Shown here: positions 13,819 through 27,666 of the stretch, piece by piece
How positions within the stretch are numbered: the first letter of the stretch is position 1
How the letters are laid out: each line of letters begins with the position of its first letter
Assembly (NCBI GenBank): GCA_947177125.1
Contig: CAMWTH010000003.1
Location: 1 to 44,208, forward strand
DNA: 44,208 nt
Source: an uncultured Mycoplasma sp.
GTDB taxonomy: Bacteria > Bacillota_I > Bacilli_A > Mycoplasmatales > Mycoplasmoidaceae
Direction: 5' to 3'
Made by a program: the position numbers and the translations under genes
The notes under the pieces: model-generated
The model's input: only the letters and a program-made list of their open reading frames with translations
Told to the model about the DNA's origin: nothing
Database searches by the model: none

Positions 13819-15204
13819 ATGAGTAATTCTGTTGTTAATACACTAAAGCAAGTTGAAAAATTTTTAGAGGACAAAAAAGATGATCAGTTTCTTTTATTAA
13901 AAGTTACTAGAATTGAAATTCTTAAAAAAATTCATAGTTGGATTTCAAATAATACAAATGAAATAATTAATAGTTTAAAAAAAGATTTAAATAAATCAGA
14001 AATTGAAACATTACTTTCTGAGGTTTATATAGTTTTAAATCAAATTACTTTTTATATTAAAAAAATAAACAGATTTTTTAAAGAAAAAAAAGTTAAAAAA
14101 AATGGACTTTTAAGTTTGGGTTCAACAGGTTATGTAACTTATAAACCATTAGGGACAACTTTAATTGTTTCACCATTCAATTATCCATTTCATTTAACTG
14201 TTTTACCTTTAATTACCAATATTGCTGCAGGTAATTACTCAATTTTAAAAAATTCTCCAAAAGCTTTTAATACAAGTAGAGTTGTTTTAAAAATGATTCA
14301 AGAATTAAATTTAGGAAATATCATTTGTTTTTTAGATGAAGATTCTGACAAAGAATTTTTATTTGATGTTATTTCAAAAAAACCAGATTTATTGTTTTAT
14401 ACTGGTGGAAAAAGTTTTGGTGATGAGTTGAAAAGACAAGCAAATTTAAATGATGTTAAAGTAATTTTAGAATTAGGTTCACCATCAGTAGTGATTGTAG
14501 ATGAATCAGCTGATATTCAACTTGCTGCTAAAAGAATAGTTTGGGGAAAACTTTTTAATTTGGGTCAAACTTGTGTTGCGCCTAATTCAATTTTTTGTGA
14601 TGAAAAAGTTATTGATAAATTAATTAGTGCAATTAATTTTGAATTAACTACACAATATGACTTAGAAAAATTTGAGTTTGCTAGATTAATTGATTCTAAC
14701 GCACTAGATAAAATAGTAAATTTAGTTAAGAATTTAACAGGAACTGATTTGGAATTTGATAAAGCAAATTTAAGAATTAAGCCAACTTTAATTAAAGTTC
14801 AAGATACTAACCCAATTTTATTTGAAGAAATTTTTGGTCCTGTTTTATTTATCTCTTCATTTAAAAACTTAACTGATTTTTCTAAAAAATACAAAGTTAA
14901 GATTAATGGTAGTTTAACTTTATACATTTTTTCAAACAACCAGTATAATATTAAAAATGTTTCTGATAACTTTCAGTATGGTTCATTAGGAATAAATGAA
15001 GTTTTATTGCAAGCTTCAAATATTCATTTACCTTTTGGTGGAATTAAATCAAGTGGAATGGGTAGATATCATGGTTTATTTGGTTTGGAAGAATTTACTA
15101 ATCAAGTTGCAATTTTAAAAGGTTCAAAAAAGGATAAGAGTTATCGATATTTTAATAAAATTTCAAAATATAAGAATTTAATTAAAATATTTGCTAAAAA
15201 ATAA
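13819..15204 (+). CDS. Aldehyde dehydrogenase family protein, ALDH3-like
   Basis: 461 aa; VILELGSPSVVIVDESADIQLAAKRIVWGKLFNLGQTCVAPNS, EEIFGPVLFI, LPFGGIKSSGMGRYHGLFGLEEFT. Confidence 0.9.
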   Translation: MSNSVVNTLKQVEKFLEDKKDDQFLLLKVTRIEILKKIHSWISNNTNEIINSLKKDLNKSEIETLLSEVYIVLNQITFYIKKINRFFKEKKVKKNGLLSLGSTGYVTYKPLGTTLIVSPFNYPFHLTVLPLITNIAAGNYSILKNSPKAFNTSRVVLKMIQELNLGNIICFLDEDSDKEFLFDVISKKPDLLFYTGGKSFGDELKRQANLNDVKVILELGSPSVVIVDESADIQLAAKRIVWGKLFNLGQTCVAPNSIFCDEKVIDKLISAINFELTTQYDLEKFEFARLIDSNALDKIVNLVKNLTGTDLEFDKANLRIKPTLIKVQDTNPILFEEIFGPVLFISSFKNLTDFSKKYKVKINGSLTLYIFSNNQYNIKNVSDNFQYGSLGINEVLLQASNIHLPFGGIKSSGMGRYHGLFGLEEFTNQVAILKGSKKDKSYRYFNKISKYKNLIKIFAKK

Positions 15205-15209
15205 ATATT

Positions 15210-16016
15210 ATGAATGATACTATACAAAAAAAATGAGAATGATTTTCTAAATTTTTTTTAATTGATCAAAAAAATAAAAAAAACATAGTTTATTTTCATG
15301 CTTTTACAGGAAGCTATAAAAATAAAAGTAATATTGTTGATAAATTTTTAGATTGCAATTTTTATGCTTTTGACATGCCAGGTCATGGTCAAACTCCAAT
15401 TTTGAATGAAAGTGAAGTTTCAATTCACAATTTTTCTGAATTAGCAATTGAATTTATTTTAGATTATGACATTAAAAATATAATATTATTTGGTCACTCA
15501 ATGGGTGGGGGGATTTGTAATATTATTGCTAATGACTCAAGAATTTCAAATCGAATAGAAAAAATAATTTTAGAATCACCTGCAAATCCTGCAAGTAAAA
15601 AAAACTACGAGACAATTATTAAACATTTAATTCCTGATACTTTAGAACAAATGGAAATGATTGGGAAAGAATTATTTTATGATCCAATTGCTTTTTTTGG
15701 TTCACAAAAAAATTATGCAAGATTTATCAGTATTGAATTTCAAAGATTGCAAAAACAAAAATTGTTAAAAAGAATTATTGATCAAGAAAATCAAGAAGAA
15801 TTAAATATAGGCGCACAACAAGCAATTAAAGCTAATAAAAAACCAACACTATTGATTTTAGGAAAAGAAGATAATATCATTCCTTATGAAGAGAGTGTTT
15901 TAATTTTTAAGCAAAATCCTGCTTTTGAAATTTTTTCAATAGAAAATGCTAAGCATGTTCCAATAGCTGAAAAGACAAACATTGCTCTATCTAAAATAAA
16001 TGATTTTATAAAATAG
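15210..16016 (+). CDS. Alpha/beta hydrolase family protein
   Basis: 269 codons with UGA=Trp; nucleophile elbow GHSMGGG; FDMPGHGQTP; C-terminal ENAKHVPIAEKTN. Confidence 0.85.
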
Positions 16017-16052
16017 TTTATTAATTTTTTGTTTTAATTTTTTGGAGTAACT

Positions 16053-16301
16053 ATGGAAAAAAGAATAGATGATATTGCTGTTATTGAAAATTATACAATT
16101 CATGACAGAGTAAAAGAAGAATTAACTTTATCAGATATTCATAAAACCCCTCTATATATTGATGAGTATGAAAATTATCTTTTAAAAATTGAGGCCGATA
16201 TTTTAGAAAAAGAAGTTTTTATAAAAGAACTTTGATTAAACAATCATCCTGAGGGAACTTTTTCTAAGTCAAGAAATTTGATTAAAAAATTTAAATATTA
16301 A
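16053..16301 (+). CDS. Hypothetical protein, 82 aa
   Basis: MEKRIDDIAVIENYTIHDRVKEELTLSDIHKTPLYIDEYENYLLKIEADILEKEVFIKELWLNNHPEGTFSKSRNLIKKFKY; GGAG upstream. Confidence 0.65.
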
Positions 16302-16449: not shown

Positions 16450-17307
16450 ATGGCTAAAGAAAAGGATTCAAATGTTCAAGAAGTTGTAGAACAACCTGAA
16501 GCAACAGATGCTAAAAAAGCAACTGCTGCAGATAGTGCAGATCATTTAGATTTTGAATATGATAGTGAAGAGTTTAAAAAGAATTTACAATTATATTCAA
16601 AGATTATAGATAGAAGTGATGAAATAGTTGCTACTATTTATAAGTTCATGAACAAAACTTTAGATGCTCCTAGTAAGGCTGAAATTGAGTTATATCGTAA
16701 ATCAATTATTATGGCCATTAGAAAAGGTAATCATAAAAAGTATGGTTATTTGTATAAAATAATTGCAAAAAATGTTTATGATTACAAAGAGCATGTAAGA
16801 GATCAAAATTATAAAGCAAATAATCAAATTATTATTAATCCAAATATATTTGCTATTTCTTGAAATGATTTACAAGCAAACATTAGGGACCGTTTAAGAA
16901 ACACTGATTCTGAAATGCTTACACCAGAAAATTTAGAAAAAGCTTATAAAGGTGAATTGGACAAAGTAAAAAAGCTATATGAAAAATTAAAAGATATGGC
17001 TGACAATGGTGTAGAAGTTCCAAATGATGTAATGAACATGACAAGAAGCACAATGTTGAAGTTAACAGATTTGGTAAACATTTTTATGTTAGAAAATTTT
17101 GATGAACTTCAACCAATGATGCAAGAAATCCAAATGTTTGAAAAGCATCATACTTTCACAGATAGTGCAAATAATTCTATCTTCATTGATGCAAACTTTA
17201 AAAGCATTACAAATCTTACACAACCTGTAAATGATACAGACGCAGCAACTAAAAAATATGTGGACGAGCAAATTGAAAAAGTTTTAATGCAAATTAACTC
17301 TAAATAA
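16450..17307 (+). CDS. Hypothetical helical protein with a phage-tail-fibre-like C-terminal motif, first gene of the ravA/viaA-like operon
   Basis: 285 aa, GAGGA SD; C-terminus FIDANFKSITNLTQPVNDTDAATKKYVDEQIEKVLMQINSK. Confidence 0.8.
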
Positions 17308-17345: not shown

Positions 17346-19067
17346 ATGAATAATGATAAATTAAGAAACTTGAGCAATCAAGAAATTGAACAAATCAAAT
17401 TAGAAGCTGAAAAAACTAGACAACAAGTTGTTAATGTTATATCTAAAGTATCTAAAAATACTGTAGAAAGAGAAGAAGTTTTAAAACTATCTTTCCTTTG
17501 TGCGATGGCAGGGGAATCAATTTTTATGTTAGGTCCTCCAGGGATAGCTAAATCTTTAGTTTCAAGAAAAGTTGCTGACATTTTTAAAAACTCAAATACT
17601 TTTGAAGTTCTAATGAACAGATATAGTACTCCAGATGAAATTTTTGGACCTATTGACATTATTGAATTAAAACAAGGAAAGTATGTAAGAAAAACTGAAG
17701 GTTATTTACCTACTGCTGAAATTGGATTCTTAGATGAAATTTGAAAAGCATCATCTTCAATTCAAAATGCTTTGCTGATGATTATTAACGAAAAAATCTT
17801 TATTAATGATGGTAAACCAGTTAGAGTTCCTTTAGCATTATTAATTGCAGCATCAAATGAGTTACCTGAAAGAAATAAAGGTCTAGAAGCACTATGAGAC
17901 CGTTTCATTATTAGAGTTGATATGAAACCAATTCAAGCTGAAGAAAAATTACTTAACTTGATTGATAACCCAGTAAATATCTTAGATGAACAAGAATTAT
18001 CTGAATCAGATAAATTTGAGTTATCTTATTTAAAAACTGTTGCTAAAAATACTCACTATGTTGAAATTCCTAAGAATGTTAAAAGATTTATTTCATTATT
18101 AAGAAAGAAAATTAATGAATTTAATGAAAAAGTAAAAGAAGTTAACCAAAACCCAAATGACTTTGACTTAATTTATGTTTCAGACCGTAAGTGAAAAAAA
18201 ATTGGATCATTACTTAGAACTTCAGCTTATTTGAACGGAAGATTACATGTTGATGTAACAGACTGTTTTATTTTACAAAATGTAATTTGAAACAATACTA
18301 CTCAAATTCCTGAAATCATTAAAATGATTAATGATACTGCTTCTTCAATTGAATACGGAATTGATGGAAGATATGCATATGCTGTAGAATCTTTTAATAA
18401 AATTAGAGAAACAATTATTGATAACATTGCTATTCATGAAAAGAAAGCTAATGTTGTTATTAAACCATACCGTAATAAACAAGGTGTTTATTATTACTTT
18501 ATGGATGGTGAAAAAAACAAATATTTCTTTAAAAAAGAAGATATTGATAACATTCCAAAAAATGATAACTTTGAAGTTATGGATTGAATGGTTAATTATT
18601 GTACAGCTGAAGAGTTTAAAACAAGTGCCTCTCCATCTAGACGTGCATTAATTAAATATGATGGAACTAATTTCTTTGTTTATAGAGATGCAAATGAAAA
18701 TGGTGAAAAAGTTAAAATTTATACTAACTTTGAAGAAAAAGAAGTTGATCACTATCGTTTAGTTAGACCAACAGTTGATTTCATTAAAGATATTAAAAAT
18801 ACTGCAACGACTTTAATTAATAGAATTAACTTAGACATTGATGGTTTAAAAATATTGAGAGAAAAAAGATTTGATGGAGTAACAGCAAATAACATTTTTG
18901 TTGAGAAAAAAGATTTAGGTTTCTTAAAAGAAGCAATTGAAGACTCTATTCAAAAACTTGAAGACATAGTTGATAAAACAAAAGATATGTTTGTATACAT
19001 TAAATTAATTAACTATGGATTTACAACAAAAGATAAAGACAAGATTTTACCAACATTAAATAGTTAA
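17346..19067 (+). CDS. MoxR-family AAA+ ATPase, RavA-like
   Basis: 573 aa; Walker A GPPGIAKS, EVLMNRYSTPDEIFGPIDI, Walker B IGFLDEIWKASSSIQNALL, sensor AASNELPERNKGLEALWDRFIIR, VSDRKWKKIGSLLRTSAYLNGR as in RavA. Confidence 0.9.
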
Positions 19068-19128: not shown

Positions 19129-20556
19129 ATGATATTTAAAGAAATAGATATTGTTAACCAAATAGTTAATCTTTTAGAACAAAGTCAAACAACAGTTTTA
19201 AAACTTTATTATTTTGTTAATGGAGAAGGCAATAATCCAACTAAACAACAATATGAAAAGTTTAAAAAAGAGTTAATTAGTTCTGTTAAAAGAAGAAAAG
19301 AAAATGCTTTAAATTTATTTCCAATCATAAAATATTTTGAGTCTAAAAGAATGACTGAAGATGATTTAAAAGCTAATGAAACTTTGTTTACTGTTCCAAC
19401 TGATGAAAAAATTGCAATAGCTTCTCCAATTAAAGTTCTAGATCAAGTTCCTGAAACTAAAGAGTATGATTTAAGTATTTTGTGAGATTTATCAAAAATT
19501 GAAGAAAGGGAATCACAATTGTTTAAAGCTGTAGAAAACTATTTCAATATTGTTAAAGATGATGAAAACTTAAAAAGATTTATTCGAAACATTGGTACTT
19601 ACATTGATGAAAACTTAGAGTTGGTTGAACAAGAAAAAGATTTATTTATGGAAAATATTCCACAAGAAACTTTTGCTTTATACCAAAGTAGTGATTTAAA
19701 TAATTTGATTCCTAATGAAATTGCACAACTTGATGATACTGATTTAGAAATTATTTTTTTAAAGAACTATATAGAACAAAAATTATTAACTTATCAACTT
19801 TGAGGAATTGAAAGAGAACTTCAAGAAGAGTGAATTATTCGTCAAAAAGACATTGGAGAAAGAGGACCAATCTTTATTTGTTTAGATACTTCTGGATCAA
19901 TGCGTAATATGAAAGAAATTATTTCTAAAGCTTTAACATTAGTTTTTGTTAGAGAATTAGAAAAATTGAACATGAACATTGTATTTATTCCTTTTTCAAT
20001 GGATGCTAAATTTTATGATTTATACAATAGTCAAGTAAAATTTAAAACAGTTAAAATGAATTTAAGAAAATCATTTTATGGTGGAACTGATTTAGAAAAA
20101 CTATTTGCAACTATAGAAAATGTAATTCATAAAAGCAAATACAACAAGGCAAACATTTTGATAATGTCAGATTTTGTGTTTAAAAAACTACCTAAAAATA
20201 TTATTAAAAAAATTAAGCACTTACAAGAATCTGGTCACAAACTTCATTCACTTGCAATTAGTGATCAAAATTATAAAAATGATTTGTTAAAACATTTAAA
20301 TACAAATTGAACTTATACATATAATTGAAAATCAAATAGTGAAATTATTGAAGATGAATTAATTAATGAATTAATTAATGCTTCTTCACTATCTATGGAA
20401 GTGATTGATACTGTTCAAGCTTTTGGTATTATTAAAAAAGTTAAGGATTATGATTTTGTTGAAGACAAAGAAGAAATGCTTAAAATTTTAAATGAAAATC
20501 TTGATTTAAACAAACCGATTGATATTCCTAACTTAGAAGATATTCAATTAGAATAA
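19129..20556 (+). CDS. VWA-domain protein, ViaA-like
   Basis: 475 aa; MIDAS CLDTSGSM, SFYGGTDLE, LIMSDFVFKKLPKNIIKKIKHLQESGHKLHSLAIS closely resembles the ViaA VWA domain. Confidence 0.88.
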
Positions 20557-22342: not shown

Positions 22343-25003
22343 ATGATAATTAGAAATAAAGTTAAAAAGTTGATATCTATTGGTGTAGTATCATCTGTTC
22401 TTGCAACATCAGGTGGAGCAGTTTTAAGTTATTACTTAACAAGTTTAAATACTGTTTATAATAGCAATGTTTCTAATGCAAAAAATGATTTTTTAAATGA
22501 CACAACAATTGATGAAAGAATTACTAATTTACAAGTTCCAACTACTTTTTATGAAATAGATGCAAATCAGTATTATAAGAATTTGAATTTGAAATCAATT
22601 TTATCTGAGTATTCAAACAAGTTAAAAAACCAATCGATCAATAGTATTATTGAAATGATTAAAGAAAGTAATTCTGATTTTAATGTTAAAAATTTTGATA
22701 AAGATATTTTATTATTTTTAAAAAATATTTATTTAAGTAGTAGTAAAAAAATTGGAATAAAAATACTAAAATCAGATTTTAATGCTGACACTAAAATTAA
22801 TTTTAATTATGAAATAGAGCTAAAAAATAATTCTAGTACTACTACTTCTTTTTCAGTAAATAATGTTAATTTGTTTATCCAAGCAAATGAAACAAAAATT
22901 TTAAAATTCTTTACAAATAGTGCTGATTATTATTTTACTGTTTCAAAAAGTTATACTGATTATTTTTTAAATTGAAACACAAGTGTTAGTTTTTCTTTTG
23001 ATGATAAAAATTATTCATTTGATAATTTCTGTTTTACTAATAACACTTATTCAATTGCAACACAAACAAAAATAGTTGGTATTGATAATAAATATAGAAA
23101 TTATTTGGATTTAGTTAATGATAAAAATAATTTTAAAAATTTATCTGAAGATTTTTTAAAAACAAATATTAAATCACATTTATCTAAAAATATGAATATG
23201 GTTTTAAATTTGTTAAGATATTTAACACCTATTATGGATGAATTTTCTAAAAATCAAACTTTATATTCACTTTTAATGAATCAAAAAAATAACATTAGTT
23301 ATATTATTTTAGAACTTTTAGAAATAAATCAAAATAATGAAGATTTTAACAGCTATTTAAAATTATTTTCAGATCTTATAGGTGGTGGTAAGTCACTGCT
23401 AGAAGTTATTGGAAACAATAACTTAGCTTTAGCAAATTTAATTGCTTTATTAATTAATGATTCAACAATTAGTGGTGAAATTATTTACACATATATAAAT
23501 AAAATTAGTATTAGTTTAACTGATGAAGAACTATTGACTCAAAAAAATGATATGAAGGGATTGATTTCTTTTTTTGTTAATTCTCAAAAAACTAATATTA
23601 ATGTAGATTTCATCAATAGATTAATTGACAATCTTTTTAACAGAAATACAACAACACTATCTTTTTTAAGTTACTTATTTGGATATGAATCAAAATCTTT
23701 AATTGATTTATTTGCAACTACTGAAGAGTCTAAATCTGTTTATCAACTATATTTTAGATTTATTAACTTAGTTGTTTCTAATCCTTCCAAATTAGTTATT
23801 ACTAATTTATTATCAAATGAAGGACGTTCTATTATTTCTGATCTATTAACTTTATCTATGGGATTTAATATTGTTCAAGGAGATACAACAAATTCATTAA
23901 TTCTTTCAATTGCTAATCAAGTAATTAGTCCAAGTAATACAAATTTAAATCCAACAAACTTAATTAATTTATTAAAAGACACAATAGTTCCATTACTTAA
24001 TTTTTTTAGTAACAAAAATAATTATTCAATTACCCAAAAATTTGAAAACTTTGCTTTTCAAGATTATAAAGTAAGTTATGATTATAGAATCCTTTTTGAA
24101 TTTAAAAATTCTTTTACTTTTAATTTAAATTCAATGCTTGAGATTTTACCTAAAACTATATCTTTAGGAAATACAAGTGTACCTAAAGAAATTTTAAACT
24201 ACGTTTTAAAACAAGATGGTGTTGCTTTAAAAGTTACAATTGGTATTAGTGATAAAATTGATTTTTTATTCTCAGGAAGTAATGAGCAAATTTATTTAAC
24301 TCCAAAGGTTTCGCCTTTGTCTGGAAAATACTATTTAGCTTATAGCATTCCATACACTATGAAAATGAAACTAAATATGCCAACAATGTTTAGTTCAATA
24401 ACATCTTTTTACAATATTTCATTACCAATATTAGGAATTGCAAGCCATCCAATAAATGATTTAATAGTTAATGTTTTAAAACAATTTTTAAGTGATTATT
24501 TATTAAGAGATTATTACTTTTACGGAACTATTCCTGCTGTTGATAATTCTTATGTTATTAGTGATTATGAGAAAAATATTTATTATGAAGGAAATTACTT
24601 TAAATGAGTTAAACCAAGTGATTCGTTTTATAATTCTTTAAAAAATAGTATATCTTCAATAAATAGCAATACCTATTCTTTAAAGTATGTTAAGTCTAAT
24701 GCTATTAATAGTCAAACAGTTTATGAAAATTTATCAGGAAAGTTACCTGTGTTTATAAACAACTTTGAAAATACTATTATTAACTCTGTTATTCAATATC
24801 AGTCTAATGTAGAACCAATCATAAATGTTACTCCTGAAGTAAATTCAAATATTCCAGTTAGTTTTATTGGTGTCCAATATGGAACTATTAGTGTTACTCT
24901 AGTTAAAATTCAAGTTTGATTTCCTTATTCGGTTGTTGATATTTCAGATCCAAGTAATGTGAAATTTAACAATTATTTTGAAGTAGAAATTAATTTATCT
25001 TAA
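22343..25003 (+). CDS. Large exported/membrane-anchored protein (886 aa) with N-terminal signal anchor
   Basis: 887 codons with UGA=Trp; MIIRNKVKKLISIGVVSSVLATSGGAVLSYYL, then long S/N/L/I-rich ectodomain; no lipobox Cys seen. Confidence 0.8.
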
Positions 25004-25182: not shown

Positions 25183-27666
25183 ATGAAATTTAGAAATTTA
25201 TTAGTATCTGAAGACAATCAACTTGTATTAAGTGATTATGGTTTAAGTGAAGGTGAGGCTGAAGTTTTAGATCTTAACAGATCTTTAACTGATGTAATTA
25301 CAGACCCTGAATTAAAATCTTTTATTATCGAAAACGCTATTGATCCACAAAAAATTTACATTTTTTGTGTTAAAGAAGACTTTGGAAATAATGACCAGTT
25401 ATTAGAAGATATTCCTAATATAAAAGAAATAGATAAAGGATTAAAAAAGAACTATAAAAAAATCCGTAATGTTTATTTCTTTGTTTATAATACTCATCTT
25501 AAAAATGATGATGCCATTAACCCTTCAATTGAAGAGCAACAACCTGTTGAAGCTGAATATCAAGAAGTTGTTGATTCTCAAGATATGCCAGTTGAAGTAG
25601 TTGTAAATGAAGAAATTCCAGGTCAAGAAGAACAAGTTGAAGTTGTAGTAGATGAAAATCTACCTTATCAAGAAGAAGAAATGGTAACAGTTTCTCAAGA
25701 AGAATTACCTTACCAAGAAGAAATAGTTGAAGCTTATAATGAAGAACCTTACCAAGAAGAGGTAGTGGTTGAAACTCCAAATGATGAATTACCTTACCAA
25801 GAAGAAATAGTTGAAGTTTATAACGAAGAATTACCTTACCAAGAAGAAGTTCAAGTTTCTAATGAAGATTTACCTTACCAAGAAGAAGTGATTGTTGAAG
25901 AACCTGAAGTATTAGTGCAAGAAGAACCTGCACAGTATGCTTACAATGAAAATAGTGTGGTTGAGTCACAAGAAGCTTTAGACAATTTAGAACATTTTGA
26001 AGAAAAACCAGAAATTGTTGTGACTGAACAACAACTTGAATTTGTTAGTGATGCTGATGAATTAGAAAAAATTGTTGATGATGGTATTGACAAATTTGAT
26101 AGTCCAGAAAGTGACAGAATAAGAGAAGACATTTTTGTAAGTAACGAAAATGTTGATGCACCTATTTCTGAAGATGTTGTTTTATTTAATGAACCAGAAA
26201 TGATTAAGGATGAAAATCTACCAATAACTGAAGTTATTTCTGATTCAGTTGAAAGTGTTGCATTAGAAAATAATTATGATCAAGAAATTCCAGTAAATGA
26301 AAATGGTCAAATTGATTATAATGATGGTCAAACAATGGTGGAAATGCCAGCTTCTTTCTTTGATGTTGAAAGAGAAGATGAAATTTCTTATGAAGACTAC
26401 AATGAATTTGTAAATGACTATGAATTAAATATTCATGCATTAAAATCAATTTATGATTTCATTTGAAGAATTTTAGTTTTAAATAACTATAATTTAAAAA
26501 TCAATGATCTTTTATACATTGCAGTTAATAACCTTGATGCTTTTTCAATTGGACAAAGTGATTTTGTAAGACAAACAGCTAATAAAGCAGAATCATTATT
26601 TGATTTGATTTTACAACTAGATATTAAGTTAGAATTCAATAACTCATTATTCTACATTTATTTAGCAGAATTCTTTAAAATTAGTGGAAACAAAATCATT
26701 GTTAATGAAAAATTCTTAGATACTATTTCAATTTGAGTTAATAATGCTTCTAAAGAAAAATTTATTAGTCAAGTTGAGCAGTTTATGAATTATAGTTCAA
26801 TTTACAATAAAAAAATTGTTTTCTCATATTTCATTGAATTAGCAAATTTTGTAAAAGGGAAATTACCTTCAATCAACTCTAACATCACATTATTAGATGT
26901 TCACAGACTATTAAATAACAAATACAACAAAATTAGAAATGAAAATGTTTTTGCCTATATGGTAAAAAGAATGAACCAAATCTTAGAAGCTAATGGTGTT
27001 GTAATTGAAATGTATTTAGTTAAAACTCCAGATAGTATGTTTGGAATTGAAGTAAATAATCCACAAGATCAAATTAGTGATAGTTGAAAATCTCAATTAG
27101 CTTTACTTTATAAAAAATTAATGGAAAACATTTTATCTTACATCCTATTAAAAGGTAATAAAGAAGTTGAAATCTTTAACTTATTCTTAGATATTAGAGA
27201 TTTAAGAATGTATCAAGATCTTGATGAAAGTAGAAATGTTTTAGCACCTGAAACAGTTAGTGCAATTAGTGGTAGAGATTCAGGTTATTTAACAATTGGT
27301 GATGAATTAGGAAGACTAGAAGCGATCGTACCTAGTCAAAGAAGTCAAGTACAATATAATTACTTAACTCCTCAAGCTTATGTTGAAAATTTAGAAAAAG
27401 GATATCCTATGGAAAGAAAATTTGGAAATAATGTTGTAAATGCTGCTGCTGATGATTTAACTTATCCACAAGAAGTTAAACTAACTAATGGTGAAATTAA
27501 CACTATTAGAGAAAACTATGCTTCAAGATTTAATGTTGCTGAATTTGAAACATCAATTTCTAGACGTATTGAAGAATATGAAAGAAAAATAAAAAATAAT
27601 ATTTCAAGAATTGAAGCTGAAAGAAAACAACTTAGAGAAAAAATGGAAGAGTTAAAAAACATTTAA
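25183..27666 (+). CDS. Large acidic repeat protein (827 aa), function unknown
   Basis: 828 codons with UGA=Trp; globular N-terminus, E/V/Q-rich repeat region with LPYQEE units, helical C-terminal half ending in coiled-coil-like RIEEYERKIKNNISRIEAERKQLREKMEELKNI. Confidence 0.85.
25660..25887 (+). repeat. Intragenic repeats encoding (L)PYQEE every ~13-17 aa, six copies
   Basis: LPYQEEEMVTVSQEELPYQEEIVEAYNEEPYQEEVVVETPNDELPYQEEIVEVYNEELPYQEEVQVSNEDLPYQEEV. Confidence 0.85.

What the first reader, a model, noticed from the sequence alone, without database searches (positions are those of the whole stretch)
17179..17304. Phage tail-fibre-like motif at the C-terminus of the RavA/ViaA-linked protein
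The C-terminus reads FIDANFKSITNLTQPVNDTDAATKKYVDEQIEKV. From general knowledge of phage tail-fibre/baseplate-associated proteins, the pattern (k)ItnLxxPxxdtDAatKkYVD recurs there. It is unexpected in a non-prophage operon of a Mollicute, and I see no integrase, capsid or terminase here. Inference: a tail-fibre segment, a trimerising/attachment element, has been domesticated next to an AAA+/VWA pair. AAA+ ATPases also occur in phage-tail-like contractile injection systems, though that link is speculative.
Basis: partly seen in the sequence, partly recalled or inferred. Interest (0 to 1): 0.72.

Follow-up and report, generated by a model that had tools for sequence, protein, structure and literature searches.

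The report
Tail-fibre trimer motif in MoxR-linked protein
A small wall-less bacterium carries, beside a molecular-machine gene pair (a MoxR/RavA-type ATPase and its ViaA-type partner), a conserved protein that ends in the three-stranded joint otherwise known from phage tail fibres and bacterial adhesins, so this machine probably works with a previously undescribed three-part partner.

Summary
The last 43 residues of a 285-aa protein ("P1", 16450-17307, code 4) are a genuine phage tail-fibre "short neck". As a lone 53-aa query they hit phage genomes at E=7e-5, mostly annotated tail fibres; a control segment of the same protein hits nothing. A profile made only from P1 orthologues finds solved tailspikes, tail fibres, phage hyaluronidases and trimeric autotransporters in register. 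Published structural work names this element a beta-layer "short neck", found in homotrimers. The motif is conserved in every orthologue found.

P1-MoxR-VWA is a stable three-gene unit in all 10 Malacoplasma genomes and two more distant Mollicutes; its MoxR proteins form one clade (100/99). New here: P1 also carries an N-terminal helical module homologous to the N-terminus of its own VWA partner and absent from the other Mollicute VWA proteins compared. No sheath, terminase or second neck protein was found in the genus, so the injection-system idea is unsupported. Mollicute prophage fibres carry the same neck, making phage capture plausible but unproven.

Best reading: P1 is a homotrimeric cytoplasmic third component of a RavA-ViaA-like machine, presenting three VWA-partner-like modules. 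Trimer likely; role inferred.

The parts
16450..17307 (+). P1: 285-aa third component (code 4, one TGA=Trp): variable N-terminal tail, helical body, C-terminal fibre neck
   Evidence: ORF and translation; orthologues in all 10 genus genomes; dN much lower than dS in the body and the neck
16588..16764 (+). P1 residues 47-105: helical module homologous to the N-terminal module of the VWA/ViaA-like partner
   Evidence: hhalign E=2e-7; HMM of the VWA N-termini finds every P1 tested at E 1.7e-7 to 1e-4, next best ORF 1.2, shuffled P1 18 or more; AF2 helices H57-68/H76-92 match H20-31/H39-55 of the VWA protein at the same offset of 37
17176..17304 (+). P1 residues 243-285: tail-fibre/TAA short neck (beta segment SIFIDANFKSITNL, linker, beta-layer, coiled coil)
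   Evidence: short neck described in PMC4786415
17242..17250 (+). Predicted beta-layer residues A265-A266-T267
   Evidence: aligned by eye to HylP DPTANDHAATKAYVDKAISELKKL, 'TAA short neck homolog' in PMC4786415 Table 2; inferred, not modelled as a trimer
17251..17301 (+). Short C-terminal helix / coiled coil (residues 268-284), hydrophobic residues V271, I275, V278, I282 at 4-3-4 spacing
   Evidence: AF2 monomer helix 268-284 starts right after the predicted beta-layer (low confidence); spacing read from the sequence
17346..19067 (+). MoxR-family AAA+ ATPase, RavA-like (573 aa)
   Evidence: Pfam bpMoxR 1e-52, AAA_5, AAA_lid_8; NCBIfam RavA 5e-73 but below the equivalog cut-off
19129..20556 (+). 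VWA protein, ViaA-like (475 aa), D-T-S-G-S motif at residues 253-257
   Evidence: Pfam VWA_CoxE 3e-7; NCBIfam ViaA 2e-45, below the equivalog cut-off

Best explanation
P1 is the dedicated third component of a MoxR-VWA (RavA-ViaA-like) ATPase system of some Mollicutes. Its C-terminus folds as a phage-fibre/autotransporter 'short neck': strands of three chains interlock, a beta-layer (AAT) caps the start of a short three-stranded coiled coil, and this holds P1 as a cytoplasmic homotrimer. Each chain carries an N-terminal helical module shared with its VWA partner. The trimer therefore presents three VWA-partner-like docking modules, most likely to the MoxR ring (a three-fold hub on a six-fold ring, if it is hexameric like RavA) or to the VWA protein, and acts as adaptor or scaffold through which the ATPase remodels or is positioned on its client. 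Shown: the neck homology, its conservation, the gene order, the shared module, and the single clade of P1-associated MoxR proteins. Inferred from homologues: homotrimer. Inferred only: docking to MoxR/VWA and the adaptor role; the client is not known. Phage ancestry of the neck is plausible, not shown.
For: Neck: (with control 43); beta-layer proteins of known structure are reported to be homotrimers apart from the SLH domain, and the phage HylP neck DPTANDHAATKAYVDKAISELKKL is listed as 'TAA short neck homolog' (PMC4786415). Three-gene linkage with different outer neighbours in different species. P1 in 10/10 genomes of the genus. MoxR proteins of P1 operons are one side of a branch with 100/99 support, in 100% of bootstraps. 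Shared P1/VWA N-terminal module, not detected in nine VWA proteins of operons without P1. Precedent: the N-terminal part of E. coli ViaA is sufficient to bind RavA (PMC9489729); other MoxR-VWA pairs work with a distinct third protein (PMC7159879).
Against: No trimer model could be made; the AF2 monomer is of low confidence (mean pLDDT 55, much of the neck under 50) and a fold search with it gave nothing. The shared module aligns over only about 60 residues, and the ViaA model match in the window protein starts only at residue 102, so equating this module with the RavA-binding part of E. coli ViaA is uncertain. No interaction data. P1 could equally be the client of the ATPase.
Confidence: 0.55

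Rival explanations
1. P1 is the client (substrate) rather than an adaptor: MoxR-VWA assembles, disassembles or conditions the P1 trimer, whose own job is structural (for example part of an internal scaffold).
For: Known MoxR-VWA pairs act as chaperones on dedicated complexes (PMC9976466, PMC7159879). P1 is encoded first in the operon. Interlocked trimers are the kind of assembly an unfoldase could reset (inference).
Against: The module shared by P1 and the VWA protein is more easily explained by a common binding site than by substrate status. No further structural gene travels with the trio.
Confidence: 0.25
2. The neck arose or was acquired independently of any phage: it is a generic bacterial trimerisation module (as in autotransporters), so 'domesticated tail fibre' is wrong although the structural reading is right.
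For: Autotransporter necks match the same residues and beta-layers are found in several unrelated bacterial proteins (PMC4786415).
Against: P1 has the phage-type signature DAATKKYVD rather than the DAVNxxQL autotransporter consensus (PMC7247746); the best solved matches are phage proteins; Mollicute prophage fibres carry very similar necks, e.g. NNKITNLANPQNEKDAVNKKYVD.
Confidence: 0.3
3. P1 is an anti-phage decoy: its fibre-type neck co-trimerises with incoming phage fibre chains and poisons or senses their assembly, with MoxR-VWA as the effector arm.
For: Phage-type neck; Mollicute prophages use it; some MoxR-VWA ternary systems were proposed to be conflict systems (PMC7159879).
Against: No PADLOC defence model matches any of the three proteins; single copy in all members of the genus with no recognised effector domain; the neck is conserved rather than diversifying.
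Confidence: 0.03
4. The trio is part of a contractile injection or phage-tail-like particle.
For: Only the fibre-type neck and the general occurrence of AAA+ ATPases in such systems.
Against: No Phage_sheath_1 and no TerL_ATPase match in any of 10 genus genomes, while controls ring; no second convincing neck protein in the genus; named neighbours are metabolic.
Confidence: 0.02

Closest known systems
TAA 'short neck' / phage HylP neck (beta-layer, beta-to-coiled-coil connector; PMC4786415)
   Same: Same sequence pattern (P-x4-D-A-A-T-K-x-Y-V-D followed by a coiled coil), same register in profile alignments to solved chains
   Different: Here it is at the very C-terminus of a helical, apparently cytoplasmic protein, with only about two heptads of coiled coil after it and no receptor-binding domain
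Phage tail fibre / tail spike proteins (PHROG 1640, 6518, 2710; Klebsiella phage KN1/KN4 fibres; Mollicute prophage fibres)
   Same: Neck residues 246-276 match tail families; Mollicute prophage fibres carry the same element
   Different: No homology seen outside the neck; no phage structural genes recognised near the locus
RavA-ViaA (MoxR AAA+ and VWA pair of E. coli)
   Same: RavA-like MoxR followed by ViaA-like VWA protein
   Different: Both are below NCBIfam's equivalog cut-offs; an additional upstream gene P1; an N-terminal module shared by P1 and the VWA protein
MoxR-vWA ternary systems (VMAP, iSTAND, FtsH, beta-propeller types; PMC7159879)
   Same: MoxR + VWA + conserved third protein as a unit; MoxR matches Pfam bpMoxR
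   Different: The third protein matches none of the described types in Pfam: a helical protein with a fibre neck; no effector domain seen
MoxR-VWA operons of other Mollicutes (e.g. L075, L076, L080)
   Same: MoxR followed by VWA, homologous proteins
   Different: Separate side of the MoxR tree; several have a 206-223 aa hydrophobic, apparently multi-TM protein upstream of MoxR instead of P1

Membership tests
TAA/phage short-neck beta-layer elements | Neck sequence pattern in register with solved necks | tested here: met
   P1-only profile against PDB chains: 9m4c 2.9e-5, 23sh 1.2e-4, 8vbx 1.7e-4, 2wb3 0.0019, 3wpr 0.0027
TAA/phage short-neck beta-layer elements | Coiled coil starting immediately after the beta-layer | tested here: inconclusive
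   AF2 monomer helix 268-284 begins right after A265-T267, with hydrophobic 4-3-4 spacing, but the model there is of low to middling confidence
TAA/phage short-neck beta-layer elements | Homotrimer with interlocked strands | not testable with these tools
   Only monomer prediction was available
Phage tail fibre protein (as a whole protein) | Virion-anchoring or receptor-binding domains and phage structural gene context | tested here: not met
   Similarity confined to the neck; no Phage_sheath_1 or TerL_ATPase in the genus
RavA-ViaA system | MoxR AAA+ ATPase with AAA lid, RavA-like | tested here: met
   bpMoxR 1e-52, AAA_lid_8 1e-20; RavA model 5e-73
RavA-ViaA system | ViaA-like VWA partner beside it | tested here: met
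   ViaA model 2e-45 over residues 102-402; adjacent in all inspected relatives
RavA-ViaA system | RavA and ViaA equivalog scores | tested here: not met
   247 bits against a cut-off of 681, and 156 against 500, so RavA/ViaA-like and not filed as RavA-ViaA
MoxR-vWA ternary systems of PMC7159879 | One of the four described third components (VMAP, iSTAND, FtsH, beta-propeller) | tested here: not met
   P1 has no Pfam domain above cut-off and the VWA protein has no beta-propeller hit; no dedicated VMAP or iSTAND profile was run
Known anti-phage defence systems | PADLOC model match | tested here: not met
   No match for P1, MoxR or VWA at E up to 0.1
Contractile injection system | Sheath protein | tested here: not met
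   PF04984 not found in 10 genus genomes, controls positive

The most novel reading that the evidence does not exclude
A new type of MoxR-VWA ternary system whose third component is a homotrimer held by a captured phage tail-fibre neck, with the trimer displaying copies of the VWA partner's own N-terminal module so that a three-fold hub docks on the six-fold ATPase ring.
Probability: 0.35. Interest if true: 0.65.

Novelty: new variant of a known kind. Interest (0 to 1): 0.5.

Why it matters
RavA-ViaA-like ATPases are widespread but few of their clients and adaptors are known. If P1 is a trimeric third component, these reduced genomes offer a compact three-protein version in which symmetry (three on six), docking module and oligomeriser can each be tested separately. 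It would also be a clear case of a fibre-type trimerisation joint used inside the cell and tied to an AAA+ machine. My paper searches found no description of it, though the library held is only part of the literature.

Tried and rejected
Pfam and NCBIfam on P1: nothing above cut-offs. Rubrerythrin and similar weak Pfam hits: chance, single members only. AF2 of P1: mean pLDDT 55; fold search against PDB best E=0.6 to 14-3-3-like helical proteins, not meaningful. Plasmid search with P1: no match. Viral contig scans: the machine gave no answer twice. Class-wide search of 298 genomes: at E<=1e-5 only the window's genome and G034. Profile A4 contains three Mollicute prophage necks, so its PDB E-values were not used as evidence; the P1-only profile A5 was used instead. 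Injection-system and defence readings rejected. Promoter scan uninformative: promoter-like hits equal the shuffled expectation. Literature searches on M. penetrans/M. iowae terminal organelle and cytoskeleton gave no lead on this protein; those papers were not read in full.

Full report
What is there. Window 16450-17307 (+) encodes a 285-aa protein under genetic code 4 (one TGA read as Trp), here called P1. It is followed after 38 bases by a 573-aa MoxR-family ATPase (17346-19067) and after 61 more by a 475-aa VWA protein (19129-20556). The ATPase matches Pfam bpMoxR (1e-52), AAA_5 and AAA_lid_8; the VWA protein matches VWA_CoxE. NCBIfam's nearest models are RavA (5e-73) and ViaA (2e-45), both below the equivalog cut-offs, so 'RavA/ViaA-like' is right and 'RavA/ViaA' is too strong. 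The genome is 1.0 Mb in 81 contigs; the nearest relatives by P1 (94-98% identity) are records titled Malacoplasma sp. or uncultured Mycoplasma sp.. The named neighbours are metabolic: M24 peptidase, aldehyde dehydrogenase, alpha/beta hydrolase, AhpC/TSA peroxiredoxin.

Is the motif real? Yes. The C-terminal 53 residues match PHROG tail, tail-fibre and decoration families at E down to 1.4e-6; four families match all nine aligned orthologues. The same 53 residues as a tblastn query against 50,697 phage records hit 93 records, best E=7e-5 (Roseobacter phage CRP-3, putative tail fibre) and 1e-4 (Klebsiella phage KN4-1, tail fibre); most listed hits are annotated as tail fibres or spikes. A control of equal length from the helical part of P1 gives no match. 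A profile made only of P1 C-termini finds, in register, solved chains of a Klebsiella phage depolymerase/tail spike (2.9e-5), tail fibres 23sh and 8vbx (about 1e-4), phage hyaluronidases (0.002-0.03) and trimeric autotransporter chains 3wpr and 3wpa (0.003-0.03). Pfam only gives a sub-threshold Phage_T7_tail hit.

What the motif is. Hartmann et al. (PMC4786415) describe beta-layers: three short strands, one per chain, closing a triangle at the end of a trimeric coiled coil. They list the phage hyaluronidase segment DPTANDHAATKAYVDKAISELKKL as a 'TAA short neck homolog', with AAT as the beta-layer, and state that all the proteins with beta-layers of known structure that they identified are homotrimers except the SLH domain. 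P1 reads QPVNDTDAATKKYVDEQIEKVLMQI at the same place. The SadA short neck in the same table (AAVNDTDAVNYAQLK) shares VNDTDA. P1 has the phage-type ending (DAATKKYVD) rather than the autotransporter consensus DAVNxxQL (PMC7247746). That P1 itself is a trimer is inferred from this, not shown.

Conservation. Nine orthologues align over their length. Between the window and the two distant ones (39-44% identity) the neck keeps S243, F245, D247, A248, N249, K251, I253-L256, P259, D264, A265, K268 and Y270-D272, while the linker between L256 and D264 varies. Against three close relatives the neck shows 4-7 synonymous and 0-1 amino-acid changes; the first 36 residues, in contrast, vary freely. In the genus search the neck profile finds one convincing copy per genome, always P1; the other matches have E of 0.15 or more.

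Distribution. P1 is in 10 of 10 genomes of the window's genus and in one genome of another genus of the family (G126) among 97 family genomes, and in one genome of a second family (G034) among 140. A class-wide sample of 298 genomes adds none at E<=1e-5. In every case inspected, P1 lies immediately upstream of MoxR and VWA, while outer neighbours change. Many other Mollicutes have a related VWA protein without P1, in the operons inspected beside MoxR. A tree of 17 MoxR proteins puts the eight P1-associated ones on one side of a branch with 100/99 support in all bootstraps, with G126 and G034 together. Thus P1-MoxR-VWA behaves as one inherited unit, with likely transfer or differential loss between families.

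The N-terminal helical module of P1 (residues 47-105) is homologous to residues 10-67 of its own VWA partner. Profile-profile comparison gives E=2e-7 (6e-5 with smaller alignments). An HMM of the VWA N-termini finds all P1 proteins tested at E=1.7e-7 to 1e-4, the next best open frame at 1.2, and 120 shuffled P1 sequences no better than 18. The genome searches show the same in both directions: the P1 profile finds the VWA N-terminus in several relatives and the VWA profile finds P1. Two separate AF2 models place helices 57-68 and 76-92 of P1 exactly where helices 20-31 and 39-55 of the VWA protein lie, at the alignment's offset of 37; both models are weak overall, but this part is among their better ones. 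In nine VWA proteins of operons without P1 the module was not detected.

How it probably works. P1 shows no evident signal peptide or membrane segment in its sequence, so it is taken as cytoplasmic (inference). The neck should hold three chains together; each chain then presents one VWA-type N-terminal module. The simplest use is docking: in E. [quoted passage not shown] A three-fold hub on a six-fold MoxR ring is an attractive geometry but is not demonstrated. Whether P1 is adaptor or client is open; I favour adaptor or scaffold because it shares a module with the VWA partner. The client is not known.

Origin. Prophage-type fibres in other Mollicutes carry closely similar necks: NNKITNLANPQNEKDAVNKKYVD in G577, ANNHKLYNLADPSADKDATNKKYVD in G110, and several in G004, G013, G020 and G043. 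A phage source within related hosts is therefore available. A 40-residue element cannot by itself show descent, and no phage protein resembling P1 beyond the neck was found; viral-contig scans could not be run.

What was ruled out. No sheath protein and no terminase ATPase match in the ten genus genomes, while control genomes ring; no PADLOC model. The injection-system and defence readings have no support here.

Verdict. Observation confirmed. Interpretation partly right: a tail-fibre-type trimer joint really is built into a conserved protein tied to a MoxR-VWA pair. It is a new variant of MoxR-VWA systems with a third component that I could not place in any described type.

Noticed in passing
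L088 and L089 (G577): Two prophage-type tail-fibre genes in one genome are nearly identical up to and including the neck KITNLANPxNEKDAVNKKYVD and then have unrelated C-terminal parts, as if the ends were exchanged at the neck.
   Followed up: partly
L075:3312-3980, L076:7280-7936, L085:2443-3099, L080:2780-3397: In other Mollicutes with MoxR-VWA but no P1, a 206-223 aa hydrophobic, apparently multi-TM protein of a common type lies upstream of MoxR; those tested had no Pfam match above cut-off. It may be an alternative third component.
   Followed up: partly
L074:4509-5865 (G034): The VWA gene of the P1 operon is split into two frames, a frameshift or sequencing error.
   Followed up: no
window 22343-25003 and 25183-27666: Two large proteins without Pfam match: an 886-aa protein with an N-terminal hydrophobic segment and an 827-aa acidic protein with PYQEE-type repeats; similar-sized genes follow the trio in G025.
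   Followed up: no
L026, L028, L029, L030, L032, L038, L041 (G004, G043, G020, G013): Several copies of neck-bearing prophage-like genes per genome in large-genome relatives of the order, some beside transposase-like frames.
   Followed up: partly
L005 around 14939-16138: A stretch of the contig translates to X, so it reads N in the stored record.
   Followed up: no
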